Of a stretch of DNA of 64,000 nt, positions 32,692-62,545 are shown in pieces (the first letter of the stretch is position 1; each line of letters begins with the position of its first letter). The notes beneath the pieces are model-generated. The model was not told the origin of the DNA. It did no database searches and worked only from the letters and a program-made list of their open reading frames with translations. The translations under genes were made by a program, and so were the position numbers. The DNA is taken from positions 1 through 64,000 of the forward strand of contig JAJYLT010000009.1 in NCBI GenBank assembly GCA_021787565.1, read 5' to 3'. This DNA comes from Acidobacteriota bacterium (GTDB lineage Bacteria > Acidobacteriota > UBA4820 > DSQY01).

Positions 32692-33013
32692 GGCGGCCTC
32701 CTAAAGAAGGCGAGAATGTAAGGCGCCGCGGAAGGACACGCCAGGAAAGCAGGTGCTTTTCGCGTCTCCCGCCCCCGTCGTCGTCATTCTGAGGACTGCT
32801 TCGAGGGAGTGCCCCCGAAGAATCTCCATCGCCGGACGTGTACGGCCATCGCCCGAGATCCCCCAGGGGAGAAGCTTCGAAGGAGGCTTCAGCGGATGAC
32901 GTGCACAAGAGCCTTTGCGTCCAGCGTTTCGCGCCTCGCCTTTCACGTCTGGCGTCTCCCGCCTTGCTAATCGCATCTCACCTCACACGCACTTCCTTCG
33001 AAGGCACCCGTTC

Positions 33014-33061
33014 ACCCTACTCACCTACTCACCTAACCACCTAATCACCTACTCACCCCCC

Positions 33062-33067
<6 letters not shown>
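33014..33067 (+). repeat. Degenerate octamer array (CTACTCAC)n
   Basis: CTACTCAC CTACTCAC CTAACCAC CTAATCAC CTACTCAC. Confidence 0.8.
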
Positions 33068-34744
<1,677 letters not shown>

Positions 34745-34847: not shown

Positions 34848-34935
34848 TGTAGGAGCGCTCTCCAGAGCGCGATACCGTGATGAGGTGAGTAGGTGATGAG
34901 GTGATGAGGGCGCGGGGAGGTCTTCGAAGGCGAGG
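34848..34935 (-). repeat. Composite intergenic repeat copy: REP-like hairpin + (GTGATGAG)n + TTCGAA-block
   Basis: TGTAGGAGCGCTCTCCAGAGCGCGAT, octamers 34877-34909, then GCGCGGGGAGGTCTTCGAAGGCGAGGCATTCGG. Confidence 0.8.
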
Positions 34936-35323
34936 CATTCGGCCGGCGCCGTTTCTCCTCAGGTCGCCGTCGCCGGACCGGGCTTCCGGGGGCGAACTTT
35001 CGGAGGGTGCCCTGCCGATTGTTGATAGGGGGGACCGGCGCCCGCACGACGGCCAGGAGCCCTGCCAACTCGACGACGGGCACCCGCCACCTTGGGCTCC
35101 GAGCCCGCTAAAATCTGGAGCCAGTGTACTGGACTCCGTGGAGGTCGGCCTCCTCATCCCATCTCTGTGGGAGGCGAAGCCCTTCGCCGATCCTTCGAAG
35201 GCAGTCCTCCATACGCACTCCCGACTGTTCTTGCCCCACCGATCACGCCACGCCTTCAGCGTGGCGCCAGACCCGCACCGGCTGCATGGAACCCCTGTGG
35301 CATTGCAAGACCTGACCCTAAGT

Positions 35324-35378
35324 GCCCAAGCGCGGCCGCTTCGGACTGGCCGACCTGATAGGCGGAGGTGTTGGGCCC
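35324..35378. repeat. Direct repeat flanking cassette segment, left copy (possible degenerate attC)
   Basis: GCCCAAGCGCGGCCGCTTCGGACTGGCCGACCTGATAGGCGGAGGTGTTGGGC. Confidence 0.6.
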
Positions 35379-35449
35379 AACGTGGTGGGCCTAACAAAGA
35401 CGATGCCCACCGCCACGCGGCTTCTCCGTCTGTTCTCTGCACCCGCTCG

Positions 35450-36541
35450 TCACCATGGGAAGAGAGAGCCTTTGACTTCCACGTTCCTTTGGTAGTGGTA
35501 GTTGGCGCCTTCGCGGCCGACGACCCTCCATTCGGCCCCGTCCCTGCTGGTCACGATATAGCGGTAGTCTCCCAAAGCGACGAACTGACTTCCGTCCCAG
35601 GTCACCGCGTTGAGTCCGGGATAGGGGAGGTCCTCTCGGGGAATTTCGAGCCGCGCGGGGCGCCAGGTTATGGCGTCCGTGCTCGTCATGATGTAGTGAT
35701 GGACGTTTCCGACCTTGAACCCGCCCACGGCGACGTATGTCCGGCCATCGAAGGACACATCAGAGGGGGCAAAGTAATCCTCCCCTCCCGCGTTCTCTAG
35801 GATACAGGACCAATGGCGGAGGTCCCGGCTCACCGCGCATTCCCGCCGGCGATTGAGATCCGTTAGGGCGAAATACCAGTCCCCGCATTTTGTCAGCGTC
35901 TTCAAGGTGAGGGGTTGATCCCCGCCGTCGATCCGCCTGTTGTGAAAGGGTCCGTCGAACTCCTCCCAGGAGCCGTCGGGTTTTCTGGCGTAGATGTCCT
36001 TTCGGTCGAAGAGGAGGACCTCGCCGGCATCGCAATAGATCCCACAGTACTGTCCATAGCGGACAGGGAGCTTTTCGACGCGGTGCCATTTTTTGGCATC
36101 AGCGCTTTCCAGCACCTCGTACTCCTCCGTCGGCACCAGGTAGTTCTTGCCGTCGAAGCAGATTCCCATGGCGGACCCGTCGCCGACCAGTTTGTCCACC
36201 ACCATCGGCCGCTCCCAATCGAGCCCGTTCCGACTGAACGACACCGCTGCCAGTCCCACCCCCGCAAAGGAGCCCTCGAGCCACGCGATGGTGTCGCATT
36301 GATCATATTCCGGGGTCCGCAGTATCTTGCCCCCCTCCTTCACGCGGGGCATGCCCTGGGCGTCGAAGGAAATGACGAAGCTGTGCTCGCCGTCGTGAGT
36401 GACGGTGAGCCCGTCGTGGCTCGCTGCTTGCAGGTATGGTCGCCGCGACCGGTAAGGCCCAGTGTAGTAGGTTCGGGCACATGCCAGCGAGAACAGGACG
36501 ACGACTCCCAGCCCGACGATGAAACTGCTCCGAACTCCCAT
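35450..36541 (-). CDS. Predicted secreted/lipoprotein beta-propeller-like protein (integron cassette ORF)
   Basis: Lipobox-like VVVLFSLACART; repeated S.DG..W / GKNYLVPTEEYEVLESADAKKWH blades. Confidence 0.65.
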   Translation of the reverse strand: MGVRSSFIVGLGVVVLFSLACARTYYTGPYRSRRPYLQAASHDGLTVTHDGEHSFVISFDAQGMPRVKEGGKILRTPEYDQCDTIAWLEGSFAGVGLAAVSFSRNGLDWERPMVVDKLVGDGSAMGICFDGKNYLVPTEEYEVLESADAKKWHRVEKLPVRYGQYCGIYCDAGEVLLFDRKDIYARKPDGSWEEFDGPFHNRRIDGGDQPLTLKTLTKCGDWYFALTDLNRRRECAVSRDLRHWSCILENAGGEDYFAPSDVSFDGRTYVAVGGFKVGNVHHYIMTSTDAITWRPARLEIPREDLPYPGLNAVTWDGSQFVALGDYRYIVTSRDGAEWRVVGREGANYHYQRNVEVKGSLFPW

Positions 36542-36743
36542 CGCCTCGCTCCTTTCGTAGCGACTTCCTCAGAGGGCCCCGCGCGGCCGGCGGCCCCATT
36601 GCAGGGGAAGCCGTTGAGGGCGGTCTTTGTGTTAGCGCCCCGAGACTCCGACAGTAACGACGTGACCCCGGCCCCTGCGTTCGCTCCCGAGAAAGCGCAC
36701 CGGCTGCACTTCCTGCCACTGCGACACCATGGGCAGCTCTGTT

Positions 36744-36848
36744 GCCCAACGCTTGCGTTCAGCAGCCGGGCAACCGCTTACAAGCCTGCACGGCGTCCAG
36801 CGGACCAGCATCCGCCAGGACCCGGTCCGCTGCAACGGCCTGTTAGAC
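36744..36848 (-). mobile_element. Integron attC recombination site (no integrase in window)
   Basis: Minus strand: R'' GTCTAAC, L'' CGTTGCAGC, L' GCTGAACG (pairs with L'' leaving one extrahelical G), spacer CAAGC, R' GTTGGGC; stop codon of the upstream ORF lies inside R''. Confidence 0.8.
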
Positions 36849-37970
36849 CTGCGTTTTGAATTTCCGTCGGACGGCTTCCATTTGCGGCCTCAGTTGCTCC
36901 ATAATTCGCTGCTTCGCTTCTGGAGTGAGTTCAATATCCCGATAGTTGGCTCTCGGCTCCATGTGCTTAGTCCAAACCTGGTTGACAAAGGAATCGGACC
37001 AGTCCGGTGGATATGGCCCAAGACTCTTGTGGAACATAGAGCGCTCTTTATCTGATTTGGAGGACCAGAAATCTACGAGTTTTTTCAGTTCGGCTTTAAG
37101 ATTCGCCTTTTCAATATAGTCTTGCTCGGGGGTGAGCAGAAGAGGAGCCAAGCTTGTGTGCACCTTGTCACCGGATGAGAACACCTTGCAGAATGGGAGG
37201 TAGAGGAGATACTCAAGATCAACCCGATTTGTTGGCCGGTGGCCGATGAGTCTGTTGGCAAGGGCAACGTAAAACAGCAGAAATACGGCTAGGCAATAGG
37301 ATGCATAGGGAGCGTAATCACACAAGCGTGGCATATGTTGGCTTAGCCAGTAGTGGTAAACTCGATTCGACCACTCTCGGGATACCGCTGCTTGGGCCAA
37401 GATAAATCGAAGATTCTCAAACTGACTTTCTGGGTTCGTGGCGATAGATTGGCTTAGCTTGAGAGCCTGATCGAGAGTTTCTGCTTTGGGGACGTTACTC
37501 TTTGTTGATAGCCAAGACTCAAGGTTGATGCTTCTGGTGGAACCACGCCACCGCCCTGATAATACCTGTTCTGCTTCGTAAAATTGTCCTTTAGACCATC
37601 GGCGCAGTGCTTCTCTTTCAGGCTCCTCCTCGAAGAAGACGCCTTCATGGCCACTTGAATCACGAATGGCCCGGCCATCTATCCTAATCGGACGACCGTC
37701 CATGACCACTTGGTTGCCCAGAAGGTTCGAAACTAACAGGATTCTATAGTGGGCGGTAAAGCACGAATCTATGGGGTGAATCTTCCTTGAGTAGTCTGCA
37801 ACCGTCTTCTTAGAGTGGTCGATGTCTTCTGAATATTTATGCAGATCGCCGAGAATCTCGATAAACAGCACTGGTGCGTAAACGAGCATGAAGTATTGGT
37901 GCGCAGAGTAGACCTCTGCGTGTGAGAGAGAATGCAAAACCGATTTGTCTAGAAGAAGCTGCGGGCCCAT
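36843..37970 (-). CDS. Integron-cassette hypothetical protein, possibly PIN-like
   Basis: 375 aa; LLLDKSVLHSLSHAEVYSAHQYFMLVYAPVLFIEILGDL and DLEYLLYLPFCKVFSSGDKVH; visibly lower GC than flanks. Confidence 0.7.
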   Translation of the reverse strand: MGPQLLLDKSVLHSLSHAEVYSAHQYFMLVYAPVLFIEILGDLHKYSEDIDHSKKTVADYSRKIHPIDSCFTAHYRILLVSNLLGNQVVMDGRPIRIDGRAIRDSSGHEGVFFEEEPEREALRRWSKGQFYEAEQVLSGRWRGSTRSINLESWLSTKSNVPKAETLDQALKLSQSIATNPESQFENLRFILAQAAVSREWSNRVYHYWLSQHMPRLCDYAPYASYCLAVFLLFYVALANRLIGHRPTNRVDLEYLLYLPFCKVFSSGDKVHTSLAPLLLTPEQDYIEKANLKAELKKLVDFWSSKSDKERSMFHKSLGPYPPDWSDSFVNQVWTKHMEPRANYRDIELTPEAKQRIMEQLRPQMEAVRRKFKTQV

Positions 37971-38104
37971 GTTATCTCAATCAGGTCTGAGGCACATCAA
38001 CCGGACTTGTTATGCGGACTCCATTCCGCCTATCAAGGAAACTCAGCGGCCTATCATGGTTCACCGTTGCAATTGCAGTCATGGCTGACCCCGAGAAAAT
38101 CCTA

Positions 38105-38158
38105 CCACAAGCGCGTCTGCTTCTGAGAGGCCGACGTGATAGGGGGCGGTGTTAGGGT
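38105..38158. repeat. Direct repeat flanking cassette segment, right copy
   Basis: CACAAGCGCGTCTGCTTCTGAGAGGCCGACGTGATAGGGGGCGGTGTTAGGG. Confidence 0.6.
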
Positions 38159-38275
38159 GCCATGGTGCGCGTGAGGCTCTTGAGCGCCTCACGACCTGGA
38201 GGCCGCTCCCCCAGCGGCAGGCCTGAGGGGCGACGGCGCCGGCCATGGCGAGCATGGGCCGCTACGGCTGGACGC

Positions 38276-38340
38276 TTCTCGCCTTCGAAGGCCTCCCCCC
38301 GCCCTCCTCACCTCATCACCTCATCACCTCATCACCTCCT
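38276..38340 (+). repeat. Composite intergenic repeat copy: TTCGAA block + (CTCATCAC)n
   Basis: CTTCTCGCCTTCGAAGGCCTCCCCCCGCC + CTCCTCAC CTCATCAC x3. Confidence 0.85.
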
Positions 38341-39025
38341 CGCCCCTTTCGCCCTCCGTCTTCGTGGTCTTCTATGAGGCCTTTCTCTTTTTCCATCGAG
38401 AGGCCCCCGACCGTCGGGTTCGGACCGGGGGGCGGGGGCTGCTCTTGGTCCTTCTCTGGATCCTTCTCTTGATCTCCTGATCTCCCTGTGGATCTATTGT
38501 GCCGCTGCCGGCCCCACGGCCGCGACGGGAAAGGGTGACACACGTCTCCGCAGAGGACGGCGCGGAATTCGGAAACGGGTCGCGCACGCGGTATCGGACC
38601 GTTTCCGCCTCTGGAACCGCCTCCTGCATGCGTGTTTCTGCCGTTTCGGCGATGGTCCGCGCCCAAGGCGCGGCTTGAAGCCCCCCACGTCCCCTCTCCA
38701 CGAGACAGCCCCGGCGAACGCGCTTCGGTGATGGCATCAGTATACGGCCAGCGCGATGGTGAACGGAAGGGGGAGGCTGACAAAGGCGGGGAGAGCCAGG
38801 CGAGGGGAGGGGCGAGGGCTCCGCACGGGACGGGGGCCATCGCGAGCTTGCCAAGCCGCCCCTGCGCTATAATGCCCCACGGAGGGATTCCCGAAATGGC
38901 CATGGAGACGAACGGGCGGAGCAAGCTCTATGTCGGCGACGACCGGGGTATCCCGCGGGAGCATGCAGCGGATGGGAGCGTGGACCTGGGCGCCGCGGGC
39001 GCCGCTTCGGCCCCGGGAGGCGCGG

Positions 39026-39766
39026 ATGCCTGATCTCTCCATGGCCCTGCGCGATCTCGACGCCCGCGTGGGAGAGGCGGTGCGGCACTTCTGGAGGACC
39101 CGCGAGAGGCAGGCCCGCAGGCAGGGCGCTACGGGGCAGAAGGATCAGGGCGCCCGCAGCGCGGTCACGGGGGGCGCGCAGATGGACGGCTTCATCGGGC
39201 TCCTGACCGGGGTGATCCTCGCCACGGGCCTGGAGGCGCGGCACATCTACTACCAAAGGGCCCTCGAGCTGCCGGGCTTCTTCAGGCCCACGAAGGAGTG
39301 GGACCTTCTGGTCGTGAAAGATGGCCAGCTCGTGGCGGTCATCGAGGCCAAGTCGCAGGTCGGCCCTTCCTTCGGCAACAACTTCAACAACCGCACCGAG
39401 GAGGCCATGGGGAGCGCCATGGACCTGTGGACCGCCTACCGCGAAGGCGCCTTCAACCGGACCGCCCGCCCCTGGCTGGGGTACCTCTTCCTGCTGGAGG
39501 ACTGCGCGGGCTCCCGCCGGCCCGTCTCCGTCCAGGAGCCGCACTTCCAGGTCTTCCCCGAATTCAAGGGGGCCTCCTACGCGCGGCGGTACGAACTCTT
39601 CTGTCGGAAACTCGTCAGGGAGCGCCATTACAGCGCGGCGGCTTTTCTGACCTCGGACGCGGAGAGCGGCCTGCAAGGCCGGTATGCCTGTCCCGCCGAG
39701 GATTTGACCTTCGACCTGTTTGCCCGTTCGCTGGCGGCCCAGATCGCCGGCCACGCGACGAGCTAG
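39026..39766 (+). CDS. PaeR7I (XhoI)-family type II restriction endonuclease
   Basis: GGAQMDGFIGLLTGVILATGL..IYYQRALELPGFFRPTKEWDLLVVKDGQLVAVIEAKSQVGPSFGNNFNNRTEEAMGSAMDLWTAYREGAF. Confidence 0.92.
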   Translation: MPDLSMALRDLDARVGEAVRHFWRTRERQARRQGATGQKDQGARSAVTGGAQMDGFIGLLTGVILATGLEARHIYYQRALELPGFFRPTKEWDLLVVKDGQLVAVIEAKSQVGPSFGNNFNNRTEEAMGSAMDLWTAYREGAFNRTARPWLGYLFLLEDCAGSRRPVSVQEPHFQVFPEFKGASYARRYELFCRKLVRERHYSAAAFLTSDAESGLQGRYACPAEDLTFDLFARSLAAQIAGHATS

Positions 39767-39767
39767 G

Positions 39768-40724
39768 ATGGCCGCCATGCCCGACGAGCCTCTCGATCCC
39801 TCCCGCCACCAGCTCATCCTGGGCGATTCGCGCGCCATGCCCTACCTTCCCGACGGGTCGGTCCACCTCGTGGTGACTTCGCCCCCCTACTGGACGCTGA
39901 AGCGCTACAACGAGGTGGAGGGGCAGCTCGGCCACGTGGCCGATTACGAAGAGTTTCTGGAAGCTCTGCGCCAGGTGTGGCGGGAGGTCTTCCGGGTGCT
40001 CGTGCCCGGCGGCCGGCTCGTGTGCGTTGTGGGGGACGTCTGCCTCTCCCGCCGGGCCTTCGGGCGGCACGTGGTCGTGCCCCTGCACGCCGACATCGCG
40101 GTGCTCTGCCGGAAGATCGGCTTCGACAACCTGAATCCCATCATCTGGCACAAGATCGCCAATGCCAACTACGAGGTGAGCAACGGCAGCACCTTCCTCG
40201 GCAAGCCCTACGAGCCGAACGCCATCATCAAGAACGACATCGAGTTCATCCTGATGCAGCGCAAGCCGGGGGGTTATCGCAAGCCCACCCAGGAGCAGAG
40301 GGACCTCAGCCGCATGACCAAGGAGGAGCACGCCGAGTGGTTCCAGCAGTTCTGGAACCTGACGGGCGCCTCCACCAAGCAGCACCCGGCGCCCTTCCCG
40401 TTCGAGCTGGCGCACCGGCTGGTACGGATGTTCTCCTTCCACGGCGACACGGTCCTCGACCCTTTCTGCGGCACGGGCACCACGCTCCTCGCGGCCATGA
40501 AGACGGGGCGCCGCGGCGTCGGCGTGGACGTGGACATCGACTACCTCCGCATGGCGTGGCGGCGGCTTCATCATGAGATGAGCGGCCTCTTCGACCGCGC
40601 CGACGTGGCCTTCTACCGGTCCGTTCCCGATGAGCCCCAGCACGTCGTCCGGGAAGAGTTCCCGCCCGCCTACCACGGCCGGTCCACCGAGAAGCCGAAG
40701 CGAAAGCGCGGCGCCGCCCGATAG
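39768..40724 (+). CDS. Type II DNA methyltransferase, TSPPY-first (beta-like) motif order
   Basis: LILGDSRAMPYLPDGSVHLVVTSPPYWTLKRY (motif IV) ... TVLDPFCGTGTTLLAAMKTGRRGVGVDVD (motif I). Confidence 0.92.
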   Translation: MAAMPDEPLDPSRHQLILGDSRAMPYLPDGSVHLVVTSPPYWTLKRYNEVEGQLGHVADYEEFLEALRQVWREVFRVLVPGGRLVCVVGDVCLSRRAFGRHVVVPLHADIAVLCRKIGFDNLNPIIWHKIANANYEVSNGSTFLGKPYEPNAIIKNDIEFILMQRKPGGYRKPTQEQRDLSRMTKEEHAEWFQQFWNLTGASTKQHPAPFPFELAHRLVRMFSFHGDTVLDPFCGTGTTLLAAMKTGRRGVGVDVDIDYLRMAWRRLHHEMSGLFDRADVAFYRSVPDEPQHVVREEFPPAYHGRSTEKPKRKRGAAR

Positions 40725-40778
40725 GCCCGCAGCCGGACATGGCCGCTCCACCCTCCATCGCGCCGGACCTGTCGCGCC

Positions 40779-40911
40779 CTCCTCACCTCATCACCTCCTC
40801 ACGGTGTCGCTCTGTGGAGAGCGCTCCTGCGGCTGAATGCCTCGCCTTCGAAGGCCTCCCCCCGCCTTCATCACCTCATCACCTCATCACCTCATCACCT
40901 CATCACCTCCC
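40779..40911 (+). repeat. Composite intergenic repeat copy: octamers + REP-like hairpin + TTCGAA block + octamers
   Basis: (CTCCTCAC/CTCATCAC)3, GTCGCTCTGTGGAGAGCGCTCCTGC, TGAATGCCTCGCCTTCGAAGGCCTCCCCCCGCC, (CTCATCAC)4-5. Confidence 0.85.
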
Positions 40912-42927: not shown

Positions 42928-43056
42928 TCCGTCCGAAGCCCCTCTTGCCGGAAGGAGCATTCCGGCGCGTCTCGCGGGGGCGGGAACGGCGGGACCCCGT
43001 GCCGGAAGCCCGCTGAAGGAGGCCACGGGGTGACAGACGGTGAAGGGGCGCCGGCG

Positions 43057-43240
43057 GGAGTCAGAGAAAGAGCCCGCCTCCCCGATCTCCCTGTGATAAC
43101 CCCTGGCCCTCCACATGCAGAGCGGTGACTCCGGTCACGCCGGGGAAGTCAGAGGAAGAGCCCACCTCCCCGATCTCCCCGATCTCCCTGTGAGAACCCC
43201 TGGCCCTCCCCATGCAGAGCGGTGATTCCGGTTACGCCGG
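43057..43240 (+). repeat. Tandem direct repeat, two ~85-97 bp units
   Basis: GGAGTCAGAGAAAGAGCCC..CATGCAGAGCGGTGACTCCGGTCACGCCGG and GGAAGTCAGAGGAAGAGCCC..CATGCAGAGCGGTGATTCCGGTTACGCCGG. Confidence 0.85.
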
Positions 43241-43455
43241 CGCGGCCAAGGGCCGGCCGCGGGCTGAGGCGGGTGGGTGCGTCCATTGGGGAGCGCCGTG
43301 CGCCTGGGGCATCTGGCGCTCGGCGGGATCGCCCTGGCCATGGCGGCGGGCCACTGGCGCAACGGCATCGGCCGGGAGGAGTACCTGCGGATCGTGCCGC
43401 CCGCCATGCAGCGCTACCCGGTTCAGGAAGGGGAGGGAGACGGTACGCGCTCTCC

Positions 43456-44235: not shown

Positions 44236-44850
44236 CTAGGCCCGGCACCTCGCGCACAGCACCGTCACGTCATCGCGCAGGGCGGCACCCGACACGAAGG
44301 CCGCGACGGCCGCGTGGAGGGCCTGCACCGCCAGCCACCACGAGCCGTCCTTCCCGGGGATGAGGTCGTAGCAGTCTCCACCCACCTCCAGGCAGGGCTT
44401 CCAGAGCACGGCCAGCTCCAGCTCCCGCACCCGGTTCAGGTCCTTCGGGCAGAGGGCGCGCTGGATGTCGGTGGCGAGCTGCAGCTCCTTGCGCATGCGC
44501 TCGCGCTCCAGGATGGCGCGATGCTGGCGCGCCGTCTCCAGGGCCAGGGCGAAGGGGACCCCCAGCTCCGCCAGGAACCGGACGTCCTCCCGGCCGAATC
44601 CGTTTCGGCGGCGGTTCAGGGGTTGCAGGACCGCCACGAGCTCCCCGTCGCGGTCCCGGAGGAAGAGGCTGCCGCGCTCGGCCCCGATGCGCTCGGCGGC
44701 CATGGCCACGATGCGCTCGGCGATCACGTGCAGGTCGAGGGTCTGGTGGGTGAGGGCGCCCGCCTCCACCACGGCCCCCAGGCGGCGCACCCGCTCGCGG
44801 AGGGCGGCGACGCCCCGGGCTCCCCTGGATGGATTGGATGATCGGCTCAT
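44236..44850 (-). CDS. GAF - SpoIIE-type phosphatase with apparent internal deletions
   Basis: GAF SLFLRDRDGELVAVLQPLN; RMRKELQLATDIQRALCPKD; GGDCYDLIPGKDGSWWLAVQ directly joined to ALRDDVTVLCARCRA. Confidence 0.65.
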   Translation of the reverse strand: MSRSSNPSRGARGVAALRERVRRLGAVVEAGALTHQTLDLHVIAERIVAMAAERIGAERGSLFLRDRDGELVAVLQPLNRRRNGFGREDVRFLAELGVPFALALETARQHRAILERERMRKELQLATDIQRALCPKDLNRVRELELAVLWKPCLEVGGDCYDLIPGKDGSWWLAVQALHAAVAAFVSGAALRDDVTVLCARCRA

Positions 44851-44926
44851 GGCGCTCCCAGCATCACCGACGGGCGTATGGCTCCACCCTACCGCGGGCG
44901 GTCACTCGGGCGCAACGACAGCCCGC

Positions 44927-45817
44927 TCAGGCCTCCCCCGCCACCGGCCGGAAGCCCTCGCCGAGCACCTCGTGGGCCTCGGACACCACGACGAAGGCCA
45001 GGGGGTCCACCTCGGCGATGATCCTCTTGAGGGCCATGATCTGGACGCGGGAGACCACCACGTAGAGGACGGGCCTCGGCTCGCGGCTGTAGCCCCCCCA
45101 GCCCTGGAGCACGGTCACTCCCCGGCCCACCTGGTTGAGGATGGCCTCCCGGACCTCCTCCGTCTTCTTGCTCACGATGAGCACCGACCGGGCGTAGCCG
45201 AGCCCCTCCACGACCGTGTCGAGCACGCGGCTGGAGATGTAGTTCACGATGAGCGCGTAGAGCACCGGCACGAGGCCGACCACGGGGATGGCGGCCAGTA
45301 GGATCAACGTGTTGCTCACGAGGAAGACCTGGCCGAAGGGGATGCGGCGGTAGCGGTGGAGGAGCTGGGCGATGATGTCCGTGCCGCCGGTGGTGCCGCG
45401 CCCCCGCAGCACCAGCCCGATGCCGAAGCCGTCCACCAGCCCCCCGAAGATCGTGTAGATGAGCGGATCGCCGTGAATGGCCGGCAGGAGGGGCTGGAGC
45501 AGGTCGATGCCGAAGCTCATCACCACCGTGGCGTAGATGGTCCTCAGAAGGACCTTGTAGCCGCCGCCCCACCGGAGGCCCGCCACGAGCAGGGGCACGT
45601 TGAGCGCCAGGGTGACGAGCCCCACCGGCCACTTCCAGAGGAAGAAGGCGAGCATGGCGAGGCCCGTCACGCCGGCCGAGACCACGTGGTTCGGCGTCAG
45701 GAACAGGTCCACCCCCGCCGCCACGATGAGCGCGCCCGCGGTCAGGAGCAGGTAGTCCCCCGCCAGGCGGAATCCCCTTCGCACCAGGATGCGCCGCACG
45801 GCCTTCCTCATGAGCAC
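44927..45817 (-). CDS. YitT family (DUF2179) membrane protein
   Basis: DYLLLTAGALIVAAGVDLFLTPNHVVSAGVTGLAML...RGTTGGTDIIAQLLHRY..C-terminal DUF2179 VVVSRVQIMALKRIIAEVDPLAFVVVSEAHEVLGEGF. Confidence 0.9.
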   Translation of the reverse strand: MLMRKAVRRILVRRGFRLAGDYLLLTAGALIVAAGVDLFLTPNHVVSAGVTGLAMLAFFLWKWPVGLVTLALNVPLLVAGLRWGGGYKVLLRTIYATVVMSFGIDLLQPLLPAIHGDPLIYTIFGGLVDGFGIGLVLRGRGTTGGTDIIAQLLHRYRRIPFGQVFLVSNTLILLAAIPVVGLVPVLYALIVNYISSRVLDTVVEGLGYARSVLIVSKKTEEVREAILNQVGRGVTVLQGWGGYSREPRPVLYVVVSRVQIMALKRIIAEVDPLAFVVVSEAHEVLGEGFRPVAGEA

Positions 45818-60281: not shown

Positions 60282-60910
60282 GGTTTGCCCCCGGTCCGGT
60301 AATCGGTGGGATCCAGGCAGGCATCGTAAAGGGCTTTATCCATGGGTATCCAGTCTGTCCTGTTGATTCCGCGGGTGTTGGTGTAGGTGGGGCTCACGGG
60401 AAATGCGCAGGCCATTTTAATCCAGCGGTTCTGAGCCATGGAAATGGCTCTAACCTCATCGGCTACTTCGGAGAGATCCTGATTCTGGCTGAAGAGCAGG
60501 GCTACATCCAGTTCATTGGCGCGGGCCATGCGCACCACATCGAGCGCAAGGCGGACGTCGATCCCCTTCTCGCGGCCCACGGAGACCGTGGCTTCTTTGC
60601 CGTCCGACAAAGTTACCGTCTCGTTGCGGTACCGCAGAGGCCGCGAGAAGGTCCAGAGACCCATCTTGCCCATCGTCGTGAGCTTGCGAACCCAGAAATC
60701 ATGCCAAAAAGGTTTCACGCGAGGGTCCGCAATGCCCGTGTAGAATCGGACTTGAGCGAGCCCCCAACCCCGCGGCGTACAGACCTGTTGGGCAAGCGCA
60801 TGCGGGTCGTAGTTCGGGTAAGTGTACCCGAAGGCGTCCCTTGCAGCGTAGAACAGGTTTTGGCCGTCAAAGAAGGCAATGGTCCGCTTGACCGAGGGTT
60901 CTACTGGCAT
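60278..60910 (-). CDS. NYN (PIN-like) domain protein
   Basis: IAFFDGQNLFYAARDAFGYTYPNYDP...EKGIDVRLALDVVRMARANELDVALLFSQNQDLSEVADEVR. Confidence 0.9.
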   Translation of the reverse strand: MPVEPSVKRTIAFFDGQNLFYAARDAFGYTYPNYDPHALAQQVCTPRGWGLAQVRFYTGIADPRVKPFWHDFWVRKLTTMGKMGLWTFSRPLRYRNETVTLSDGKEATVSVGREKGIDVRLALDVVRMARANELDVALLFSQNQDLSEVADEVRAISMAQNRWIKMACAFPVSPTYTNTRGINRTDWIPMDKALYDACLDPTDYRTGGKP

Positions 60911-61257
60911 AGAACCCCCGTAAAAGCAAAACCCCGCCGGAGGCCTTGCGGCAAGTCCAGCGGGGAGCAGATCAAGATATCAATATAGTCCTTGAAAGAG
61001 ACTCCGTCAAGCGGTCCGCCCTTTGAGGTGCCAAATTGGCGCCTCAAGTCCTGAAACTCTTCCGGAGAAAGCTGGAACATGAAATCTCCGGGGAAGCGGT
61101 CGAGATTGCGTTTGACGGCCCGCAGGAGCACCTTCGTTTCCACCCCGTACAAGCGGGCGATGTCTTCGTCCAAGATGACCTTGACGGATCGGATGGATCG
61201 GATGAGCAATGCTACTTCGGTGACCTGCCGTGCGAGAGCATTGGGGGCCTTGGTCAT
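60901..61257 (-). CDS. ORF6N-domain protein, C-terminally truncated/replaced
   Basis: LLIRSIRSVKVILDEDIARLYGVETKVLLRAVKRNLDRFPGDFMFQLSPEEFQDLRRQFGTSKGG; remainder encoded by repeat element. Confidence 0.75.
   Translation of the reverse strand: MTKAPNALARQVTEVALLIRSIRSVKVILDEDIARLYGVETKVLLRAVKRNLDRFPGDFMFQLSPEEFQDLRRQFGTSKGGPLDGVSFKDYIDILICSPLDLPQGLRRGFAFTGVLCQ
60911..61050 (-). promoter_or_regulatory. Duplicated promoter-hairpin leader, copy 1 (upstream of NYN gene)
   Basis: Minus strand: GGCGCCAATTTGGCACC dyad; TTGACG-N17-TATATT; CCCCGCTGGA..GGCCTCCGGCGGGGTTTTGCTTTT hairpin; then ATG. Confidence 0.7.
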
Positions 61258-62399
61258 TTCTTTCTCCGCTCCTCCAGCATTTTCCGGGTCGCCTCCAGCT
61301 CCCGAACGATGACCTTCTCCTCGGGCAGGATCATCTTGTATTCGGCGGCGAGGACCTTGTTGGGCAGGCCCTCCAGGGCGTATTTGGCGACGGCCTCGTC
61401 CTTCTGGGCGCAGAGGATGAGGCCCACGGGCGGATTCTCGCCCTCGCGCATCCAGTGCTCGCGGGCGTAGTTCAGGTAGAGGTGCATCTGGCCCGCGTCG
61501 GCGTGGGTGAACTTACCGGTCTTGAGGTCAATGACCATAAGGCACTTGAGGCGGCGGTGGAAGAAGAGCAGGTCCACCCGGTACCACTCGTCGCCCACCC
61601 GCAGGCGGCGCTGGCGGCCCATGAAGGCGAAGTCTTCCCCGAGCTCCAAGAGGAAGTGCTCCAGATGCTGGATGAGGGCCTCCTCGATGTCGCTCTCGGA
61701 GTACTCATCCTTCAGGCCGAGGAACTCCAGGACGAAGGGGTCCTTGATCTCCTCCTCCGGCTGCACCGCGTCCTGGGGAAGAGCCCTGGCGCCCTTGGTG
61801 AGCAAGGCGGCCTTGTTCTTGGACAGAGTCGTCCGTTCGTAGAAGAGGGACTGGATCTGGCGGTCGAGCTGGCGCACGGACCATCCCGAGCGAAGGGCTT
61901 CCTCCTCGTAGAAGCGCCGCCCGGCCTCGTCCTTCACCGAGAGGAGGCGCACGTAGGCCGACCAGGGTAAGGGGAAGCGCCGAGACAGGTCACTCAGGCT
62001 TGGCAGTGGCGACGCCGCCTTGGATTTCCGAGACGGTGTCTCGGTTTTCTTTTGGCCCAATTTCCGAGACGGTGTCTCGGAAATTTCAACAGTATCGAAC
62101 GCGAGATAGAAGCGGCGCATATTCTCGATGTTGTCCGGTGAAAAGCCACGACCGAATCGGGATGTCAGGTCGTCGGATAGGCGCTTTAAGAGGGCATCTC
62201 CGTAACCTGCCCGGCGGAGGCCCGCTTGTTCGCTCTGAACGACTCTGCGACCGATTTCCCAGTAGGTCGCGGTCATGATCGCATTGACGGTTCTAGCAGA
62301 GCACCGCCGCGCCTCCTCAATGAGGGAAACCATGCTGGCGAGAAGTCCACCATAGTCTTGAAAAGCGGTCGCGTTCTTGGCAGAGGGGTCTAGTGGCAT
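61254..62399 (-). CDS. YhcG-type PDDEXK nuclease (DUF1016) protein
   Basis: TATYWEIGRRVVQSEQAGLRRAGYGDALLKRLSDDLTSRFGRGFSPDNIENMRRFYL..DLLFFHRRLKCLMVIDLKTGKFTHADAGQMHLYLNY. Confidence 0.93.
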   Translation of the reverse strand: MPLDPSAKNATAFQDYGGLLASMVSLIEEARRCSARTVNAIMTATYWEIGRRVVQSEQAGLRRAGYGDALLKRLSDDLTSRFGRGFSPDNIENMRRFYLAFDTVEISETPSRKLGQKKTETPSRKSKAASPLPSLSDLSRRFPLPWSAYVRLLSVKDEAGRRFYEEEALRSGWSVRQLDRQIQSLFYERTTLSKNKAALLTKGARALPQDAVQPEEEIKDPFVLEFLGLKDEYSESDIEEALIQHLEHFLLELGEDFAFMGRQRRLRVGDEWYRVDLLFFHRRLKCLMVIDLKTGKFTHADAGQMHLYLNYAREHWMREGENPPVGLILCAQKDEAVAKYALEGLPNKVLAAEYKMILPEEKVIVRELEATRKMLEERRKK

Positions 62400-62545
62400 C
62401 GGACCCCCCTAAAAGCAAAACCCCGCCGGAGGCCTTTCGGCTGATCCAACGGGGAGCAGAGTACACAGGGAATATAGCCCTCTGAACAGTAAGGGTCAAG
62501 GGCGCTCTTTAAGGTGCCAATGTGGCGCCTTGAAGGGCTGGACTC
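62400..62545 (-). promoter_or_regulatory. Duplicated promoter-hairpin leader, copy 2 (upstream of YhcG gene)
   Basis: Minus strand: GGCGCCACATTGGCACC dyad; TTGACC-N17-TATATT; CCCCGTTGGA..GGCCTCCGGCGGGGTTTTGCTTTT; then ATG. Confidence 0.7.

What the first reader, a model, noticed from the sequence alone, without database searches (positions are those of the whole stretch)
34848..40911. Composite intergenic repeat: TTCGAA block + (CTCATCAC)n + REP-like hairpin
At 34848-34935 (reverse), 38276-38340 and 40779-40911 the same modules recur in consistent order: [GAATGCCTCGCCTTCGAAGGCCTCCCCCCGCC][CTCATCAC]n[GGTATCGC-GCTCT-GGAGAGCGCTCCTACAG]. A degenerate octamer array is also at 33014-33067. Octamer copy number varies (3-6), as in a VNTR. 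The 34.8 and 40.8 kb copies carry the REP hairpin after TCAC at the same position.
Basis: seen in the sequence. Interest (0 to 1): 0.7.

Follow-up and report, generated by a model that had tools for sequence, protein, structure and literature searches.

The report
Mosaic repeats between genes, strand-oriented
The gaps between genes in this uncultured Acidobacteriota genome are filled with a patchwork of a known kind of jumping hairpin repeat and short tandem repeats, and the tandem repeats, here and in other bacterial phyla, nearly always point the same way relative to the nearest gene edge, which suggests an unexplained general rule for how such repeats form or survive.

Summary
The window (Acidobacteriota, 3.47 Mb genome) carries a mosaic of three modules: a TTCGAAGG block (A), octamer arrays (CTCATCAC)n (B), and a hairpin (C). 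All three recur genome-wide and in a second species of the genus. C is a GTAG-tagged REP with 41 copies (<=3 mismatches). Some copies form REPIN-type inverted pairs. RAYT transposase homologues in this genome and in three other genera of the family are flanked by REPs of the same architecture. GTAG REPs were previously listed for other phyla (PMC3733652), so this is a new member of a known kind. The octamers are not a simple VNTR: at the window's loci the sister species lacks them, and elsewhere units and copy numbers are replaced. The unexpected result is polarity. Intergenic 7-9-mer arrays of many unrelated sequences lie with the G-rich strand reading outward from the adjacent gene: 50/51 within 30 nt of a stop, about 90% within 120 nt before a start, random further away. 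It held in unselected DNA (25/28 within 30 nt) and in loci from other phyla (93/107). Rehm 2015 reported the same bias for GGGAATC heptamers as G-quadruplexes; here arrays without GGG obey too. The cause is unproven.

The parts
32995..33006 (+). A-like block (CCTTCGAAGGCA) before a degenerate octamer array
33017..33056 (+). Degenerate octamer array (CTACTCAC type), ending 5 nt from the EttA-like gene's stop; outward strand is G-rich
   Evidence: absent at the orthologous place in G001
34849..34872 (+). REP, GTAGGAGCGCTCTCCAGAGCGCGA (perfect 7-bp stem, CC loop)
   Evidence: conserved at the orthologous place in G001 C3:30201
34877..34908 (-). Octamer array, 4 units, starting 4 nt after the REP
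34907..34945 (-). A-block (GGCCGAATGCCTCGCCTTCGAAGACCTCCCCGCGCCCT)
38278..38305 (+). A-block (CTCGCCTTCGAAGGCCTCCCCCCGCCCT)
38304..38343 (+). Octamer array, 4 units plus a decayed one; no REP
40779..40802 (+). Octamer array, 3 units
40807..40830 (-). REP (GCAGGAGCGCTCTCCACAGAGCGA, 3 mismatches), 4 nt from the array
40831..40868 (+). Spacer GGCTGAATGCCTCGC plus A-block CTTCGAAGGCCTCCCCCCGCCTT
40867..40906 (+). Octamer array, 5 units
33062..34744 (-). ABC-F ATPase gene (EttA-like), flanked on both sides by arrays
   Evidence: PF00005, PF12848
38930..40724 (+). XhoI-family endonuclease and N6/N4 DNA methylase cassette between two direct composite copies; absent from G001

Best explanation
It is a BIME-like mosaic with three ingredients. 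(1) The hairpin is a GTAG-tagged REP, a solo half of a REPIN, belonging to a REP family whose RAYT (Y1 HUH transposase) is encoded in this genome. Shown: sequence, structure, inverted pairs, RAYTs flanked by same-architecture REPs. Inferred: RAYT single-strand nicking and rejoining spread it. (2) The octamers and other 7-9-mer arrays arise and turn over by slippage or repair synthesis in intergenic DNA. Shown: different units and numbers at orthologous sites. Inferred: slippage. (3) The A-block and the D and E modules are linkers copied with their neighbours by recombination (inferred). Near a gene edge an array is kept almost only when its G-rich strand reads away from the gene (shown), in all four gene arrangements. 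My best mechanism for this polarity is selection at gene edges on C/G strand asymmetry of the transcripts. G-rich, Shine-Dalgarno-like RNA is not tolerated just before a start. C-rich, G-poor, Rho-loadable RNA is not tolerated in the naked RNA just after a stop, while such RNA entering a gene from outside is tolerated or useful against antisense transcription. That last step is inferred and not tested.
For: Copies genome-wide with zero in reversed controls; octamer arrays near-absent in the rest of the phylum sample. REPIN-type pairs at 21-23 nt spacing. RAYT at C48 with REP pairs on both sides; homologues in G002, G008 and G004 at 43-52% identity are flanked by REPs GTRGGAG-stem-CGA, in G008 with the same CTCTCC..AGAG core as the window REP. 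REP kept but neighbour array swapped in the sister species; orthologous gaps keep R...Y polarity but swap units. Polarity: 21/22 octamers within 30 nt; G001 18/19 within 60 nt; 25/28 within 30 nt in 751 kb unselected, p=2.7e-5; other phyla 77/90 within 30 nt. Stop side 50/51 within 30 nt and random beyond; start side about 0.9 to 120 nt and random beyond. Non-repeat intergenic DNA shows no such bias beyond 0.57. Dependence on G>C, not purine alone. Rho present. Rehm 2015 saw the same placement for GGGAATC repeats with real annotation (PMC4692102).
Against: No transcript data. Selection needs two separate reasons (5' and 3') for what looks like one symmetric rule. The start-side rule is weaker for units without SD-like motifs (38/49 against 58/64) but does not vanish. 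C-rich arrays in a gene's own 5' leader might harm it. The REP subtype in the window (CTCTCC core) has no directly adjacent RAYT in this genome. The first unselected sample alone (396 kb) was not significant (9/11 within 60 nt). Gene calls are from a crude codon-usage script, and the 30/120 nt cut-offs were fixed after seeing data.
Confidence: 0.5

Rival explanations
1. Polarity is made, not selected. Arrays are synthesised outward from free 3' ends in intergenic DNA (breaks, or 3'-OH ends left by RAYT nicks), G-rich strand growing 5' to 3', and the two extended ends are then joined, giving R...Y gaps like two short telomeres facing each other.
For: One symmetric rule holds equally in ++, --, +-, -+ gaps (0.87-0.92). 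Gaps with two arrays are RY 27 and YR 0 in the selected loci, and RY 16, YR 2 in unselected DNA. Arrays begin exactly 4 nt after REPs with the G-rich strand leading away, also for a different array in G001. R and Y arrays of one gap share unit type more than by permutation (17 against 8).
Against: Polarity disappears beyond 30 nt from stops and 120 nt from starts, which a break-end model does not predict. No polymerase or repair genes were examined.
Confidence: 0.2
2. The composite REP-4 nt-(GTGATGAG)n-A-block is one mobile unit (MITE-like), with the REP hairpin at one end and the TTCGAAGG palindrome at the other, moved whole by the RAYT.
For: Exact 4-nt REP-array spacing in 6 of 74 REPs checked with different sequence upstream of GTAG; A-49 nt-REP spacing also recurs in both species.
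Against: Most REPs lack arrays, and many arrays lack REP and A. Different arrays sit beside one orthologous REP. No constant outer ends or target duplication were seen.
Confidence: 0.15
3. The arrays act as G-quadruplexes, as discussed for Xanthomonas/Nostoc GGGAATC repeats.
For: Same gene-edge placement and polarity as in PMC4692102.
Against: Units without any GGG obey the rule (84/95 in the genus, 79/100 elsewhere within 60 nt); the octamer has at most GG runs.
Confidence: 0.04
4. The stop-side rule is an ascertainment effect: G-rich units contain stop codons and so create the gene end, whereas C-rich arrays are read through.
For: TGA/TAG occur in most R units; MacGregor 2015 used this argument for TAACTGA repeats (PMC4679880).
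Against: Units with no stop codon obey (12/13 at 1-30 nt). No octamer arrays were found inside genes (0 of 68). The start side also obeys.
Confidence: 0.06

Closest known systems
GTAG-1-type REPs and REPINs with RAYT (Pseudomonas, Stenotrophomonas, E. coli; PMC3733652, PMC3116915, PMC8266576)
   Same: GTRG tag, unpaired GA, perfect short stem, short loop, conserved tail, intergenic, inverted pairs about 22 nt apart, RAYT genes flanked by REPs.
   Different: Found in Acidobacteriota, a phylum not in the 2013 list of GTAG-REP phyla (only TIR-flanked RAYT-like genes in Koribacter). Low copy number (about 40). Often solo and fused to tandem arrays.
BIMEs (bacterial interspersed mosaic elements)
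   Same: Mosaic of REPs and other short motifs in fixed orders between genes.
   Different: The other motifs are tandem octamer arrays and a TTCGAAGG block, not the E. coli BIME linkers.
Intergenic heptamer arrays GGGAATC of Xanthomonas and Nostoc (PMC4692102)
   Same: Short-period intergenic arrays near gene edges, inverted pairs, G-rich strand on the coding strand after stops and on the non-coding strand before starts, length variation between species.
   Different: Here many unrelated 7- and 8-mers follow the rule, most without G-tracts, and some are joined to REPs.
TAACTGA repeats of Beggiatoaceae and cyanobacteria (PMC4679880)
   Same: Abundant short intergenic direct repeats with an orientation preference relative to genes.
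   Different: Single unit sequence with G=C, oriented TAACTGA toward the start codon; no REP association reported.

Membership tests
GTAG-tagged REP | GT[AG]G tag next to a perfect short palindrome with short loop and conserved tail | tested here: met
   GTAG-GA-GCGCTCT-CC-AGAGCGC-GA; 175 related copies and 59 variants with GC/CG/AT/TA exchanges at stem positions (copies were pre-filtered for >=6 of 7 pairs, so the paired fraction itself is not independent)
GTAG-tagged REP | Many dispersed intergenic copies | tested here: met
   41 copies <=3 mismatches in G000, 42 in G001, 0 in controls; intergenic or at contig edges by crude gene calls
REPIN | Two REPs in inverted orientation at fixed spacing | tested here: met
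   Six pairs at 21-23 nt elsewhere in the genome; the window copies themselves are solo REPs
REP-RAYT system | RAYT (Y1 HUH transposase) gene flanked by the cognate REPs | tested here: met
   C48 RAYT homologue (HFH and YMNLNPVRAGLV motifs; Pfam Y1_Tnp E=4.6e-4, below cut-off) with REP pairs on both sides; homologues in G002, G008, G004 likewise. Those REPs are the same family but not the identical subtype as the window REP
REP-RAYT system | RAYT cleaves and rejoins the REP strand | not testable with these tools
   needs biochemistry
VNTR locus | Same array with different copy number at the same locus in related genomes | tested here: inconclusive
   Window arrays absent in G001; in one orthologous gap of C62/C115 copy number and unit both differ; no strains of one species compared
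MITE | Terminal inverted repeats and constant ends of the whole composite | tested here: not met
   No constant outer ends in aligned flanks of A and REP copies; target duplications not tested
G-quadruplex heptamer arrays | Runs of at least three G per unit | tested here: not met
   GTGATGAG has none; most obeying units have none
G-quadruplex heptamer arrays | G-rich strand outward from gene edges | tested here: met

The most novel reading that the evidence does not exclude
Across bacterial phyla, intergenic short tandem arrays of unrelated sequence are laid down or kept with the G-rich strand running 5' to 3' away from the adjacent gene, whatever its direction. This would be a general strand law of bacterial intergenic DNA, made either by 3'-end-directed array synthesis or by a transcription-level filter, and not by G-quadruplexes or any single repeat family.
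Probability: 0.5. Interest if true: 0.8.

Novelty: new variant of a known kind. Interest (0 to 1): 0.55.

Why it matters
It extends GTAG REP/RAYT systems to Acidobacteriota in a form fused with tandem arrays. It also exposes a strand-polarity rule for intergenic short tandem repeats that holds across unrelated units and phyla. If general, the rule constrains how such repeats are born or filtered, weakens the G-quadruplex reading of a published case, and can be tested directly in any annotated genome collection or in Rho-inhibition and mutation-accumulation data.

Tried and rejected
Chance alignment in low complexity: rejected by zero control hits and genome-wide copies. Known ncRNA: no Rfam match above threshold in 32-42 kb. 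Octamers as a phylum-wide feature: 3 of 119 genomes. A first REP pattern with wrong spacing gave only background (my error). A 23-nt A-block pattern gave no hit in genome contigs. G-quadruplex cause: not needed. Stop-codon ascertainment: units without stops obey. General purine bias of intergenic DNA: too weak. RNA hairpin between the R and Y arrays of one gap: duplex energy only slightly better than permuted (P=0.03), unit sharing significant, so not the general driver.
Full report
OBSERVATION. With A = TTCGAAGG-TCCCC-GCGCCCT block, B = octamers and REP = hairpin, they read: 34.8 kb A-B-4 nt-REP (minus strand); 38.3 kb A-B; 40.8 kb B-4 nt-REP-15 nt-A-B; 33.0 kb A-like block plus degenerate B. 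Similarity extends over 69 nt at 91%, so it is not confined to the octamers. In the host genome (G000, 3.47 Mb, 77 contigs) the composite has 72 matches, the doubled octamer 114 hits against 0 for the reversed pattern, and the REP 24-mer 41 copies at <=3 mismatches against 0.

WHERE. The phylum is Acidobacteriota. Octamer arrays are common in G000 and G001, rare in one further genome of the family and absent in the other phylum genomes sampled. The REP is also present in three of the family's other genera.

THE HAIRPIN. GTAG-GA-GCGCTCT-CC-AGAGCGC-GA has the tag, unpaired dinucleotide, perfect stem and tail that Di Nocera et al. give for GTAG-1/2 REPs (PMC3733652). Six inverted pairs with 21-23 nt spacing, one arm GCGCTCT and the other GGCCTCT, have REPIN architecture. 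The genome holds 6 Y1_Tnp genes above cut-off and one below it. The weakest match, at C48, is a 182-aa RAYT-like protein with HFH and YMNLNPVRAGLV motifs, lying between two pairs of REPs of the type GTGGGAGCGATCGCC..GATCGCGA. Its homologues in G002 (52%), G008 (50%) and G004 (43%) are likewise beside REPs of the form GTRGGAG-stem-CGA, and in G008 the REP core is GGGCTCTCCAGAGCCC, close to the window's. Related REPs show stem changes on both sides (pre-filtered for pairing). Di Nocera et al. listed GTAG REPs for Proteobacteria, Cyanobacteria, Chloroflexi and the PVC group; for the acidobacterium Koribacter only TIR-flanked RAYT-like genes are mentioned in the passages I read. I therefore file the hairpin as a new member of the GTAG REP kind. 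Movement by RAYT is inferred.

THE MOSAIC. A, B and REP combine with a D element (GTCATCCTGAAG..CAGGATGACC, about 170 bp) and an E array (CACGGAG type). Units A-B-D repeat in tandem at C49, C71, C30 and C77. In both species octamers start exactly 4 nt after the REP in 6 of 74 REPs checked (expected about 0.04), and an A-49 nt-REP spacing recurs. In G001 the REP upstream of the EttA-like gene is conserved, but the neighbour is a CACGGAG array and not octamers. The arrays at 33.0, 38.3 and 40.8 kb and the XhoI cassette are absent although the flanking genes are 91-94% identical. The mosaic therefore turns over faster than the genes.

POLARITY. A codon-usage gene caller placed module clusters almost only between genes. 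Octamer arrays within 30 nt of a gene edge had the GTGATGAG strand reading outward in 21 of 22 cases, at stops and at starts. The rule extends to other 5-11-mer arrays in G000 (20/22 non-octamer within 30 nt) and to G001 (18/19 within 60 nt). Non-repeat intergenic DNA never exceeds 0.57-0.58 purine outward. Gaps with two arrays are ordered R then Y 27 times and never Y then R. I then fetched unselected stretches. The first 396 kb was suggestive only (re-counted). The next 751 kb gave 25/28 within 30 nt (p=2.7e-5) and 31/40 within 60 nt. In 8-kb loci from other phyla (Bacteroidota, Cyanobacteria, Chloroflexi, Spirochaetes and others; chosen for holding the octamer) the counts were 77/90 within 30 nt for all arrays and 36/39 for the octamer type. 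Pooled: after stops 50/51 within 30 nt and random at 31-60; before starts about 0.9 out to 120 nt and random beyond 120. All four gene arrangements give 0.87-0.92. Units without GGG, without stop codons or without SD-like motifs still obey, but units that are A-rich without G>C do not (7/13), so the relevant asymmetry is G over C. Orthologous gaps keep the polarity while the unit sequence is replaced, e.g. GCGATTGA-type against GTGATGAG arrays after the same stop.

LITERATURE. Rehm et al. 2015 (PMC4692102) report the same placement for GGGAATC-type heptamers in Xanthomonas and Nostoc, with inverted pairs, discussed as G-quadruplexes. My data suggest that this is a case of a broader rule that does not need G-quadruplexes. 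MacGregor 2015 (PMC4679880) describes TAACTGA repeats with another orientation preference; that unit has G=C. I found no earlier statement of the general rule in the papers searched, a limited library.

MECHANISM. Supply: RAYT-type REP movement, slippage and recombination. Filter: I prefer selection on strand asymmetry of RNA at gene edges (SD-like RNA before starts, Rho-loadable C-rich RNA after stops; Rho is present). The strongest rival is outward 3'-end-directed synthesis, which explains the symmetry better but the distance limits worse. Neither was tested.

CAVEATS. The gene calls are crude. Selected loci were chosen by octamer, REP or RAYT. The other-phyla loci are octamer-selected. The distance cut-offs of 30 and 120 nt were set on the data, while the 30/60-nt counts in the second unselected set used cut-offs fixed beforehand. 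Arrays within one contig may not be independent.

Noticed in passing
window 38930-40724: XhoI-family endonuclease plus N6/N4 methylase cassette lies between two direct composite repeats and is absent from the syntenic sister genome; a repeat-bounded gain or loss of a restriction-modification system.
   Followed up: partly
G000 C62 about 44840-45220 (in L105): A small gene resembling the S23/four-helix-bundle (23S intervening-sequence) family sits between an R array and a Y array; the sister genome has only a 77-nt gap there. Identified by eye only.
   Followed up: partly
G000 C62 and other contigs (seen): An inverted-repeat element of about 165 bp, AATTCCGCGAT...ATCGCGGAATT, with a REP pair (GTAGGAGCGCCGCCCCCGGCGCGA) inside; a TIR-plus-REP hybrid.
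   Followed up: no
G000 C33:89340-90180 and C24:28400-29650: Two further Y1_Tnp genes surrounded by their own palindromes (GTGGGGCGGGCGCCCTCGCCCGCC; GTAGCGGCCGGCGGAAGCCGGCC), so at least three REP-RAYT-like families coexist.
   Followed up: partly
window 60887-60971 and 62376-62460: Two copies (86%) of an intergenic hairpin-like repeat, CCCCGCCGGAGGCCTT..CCAGCGGGG.
   Followed up: no
window 43049-43242: Tandem duplication of a unit of about 97 bp (two copies) in an intergenic region.
   Followed up: no
window 16499 and 18082: TTCACCACCAAGACACGAAG repeats, another intergenic array type, also found as complementary pairs in one gap.
   Followed up: no
octamer unit, all arrays: The C-rich unit contains ATCACCTC, which as recalled from general knowledge equals part of the 16S rRNA 3' tail (anti-Shine-Dalgarno); the variable positions spare the AGGTGA core. 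May be coincidence.
   Followed up: no
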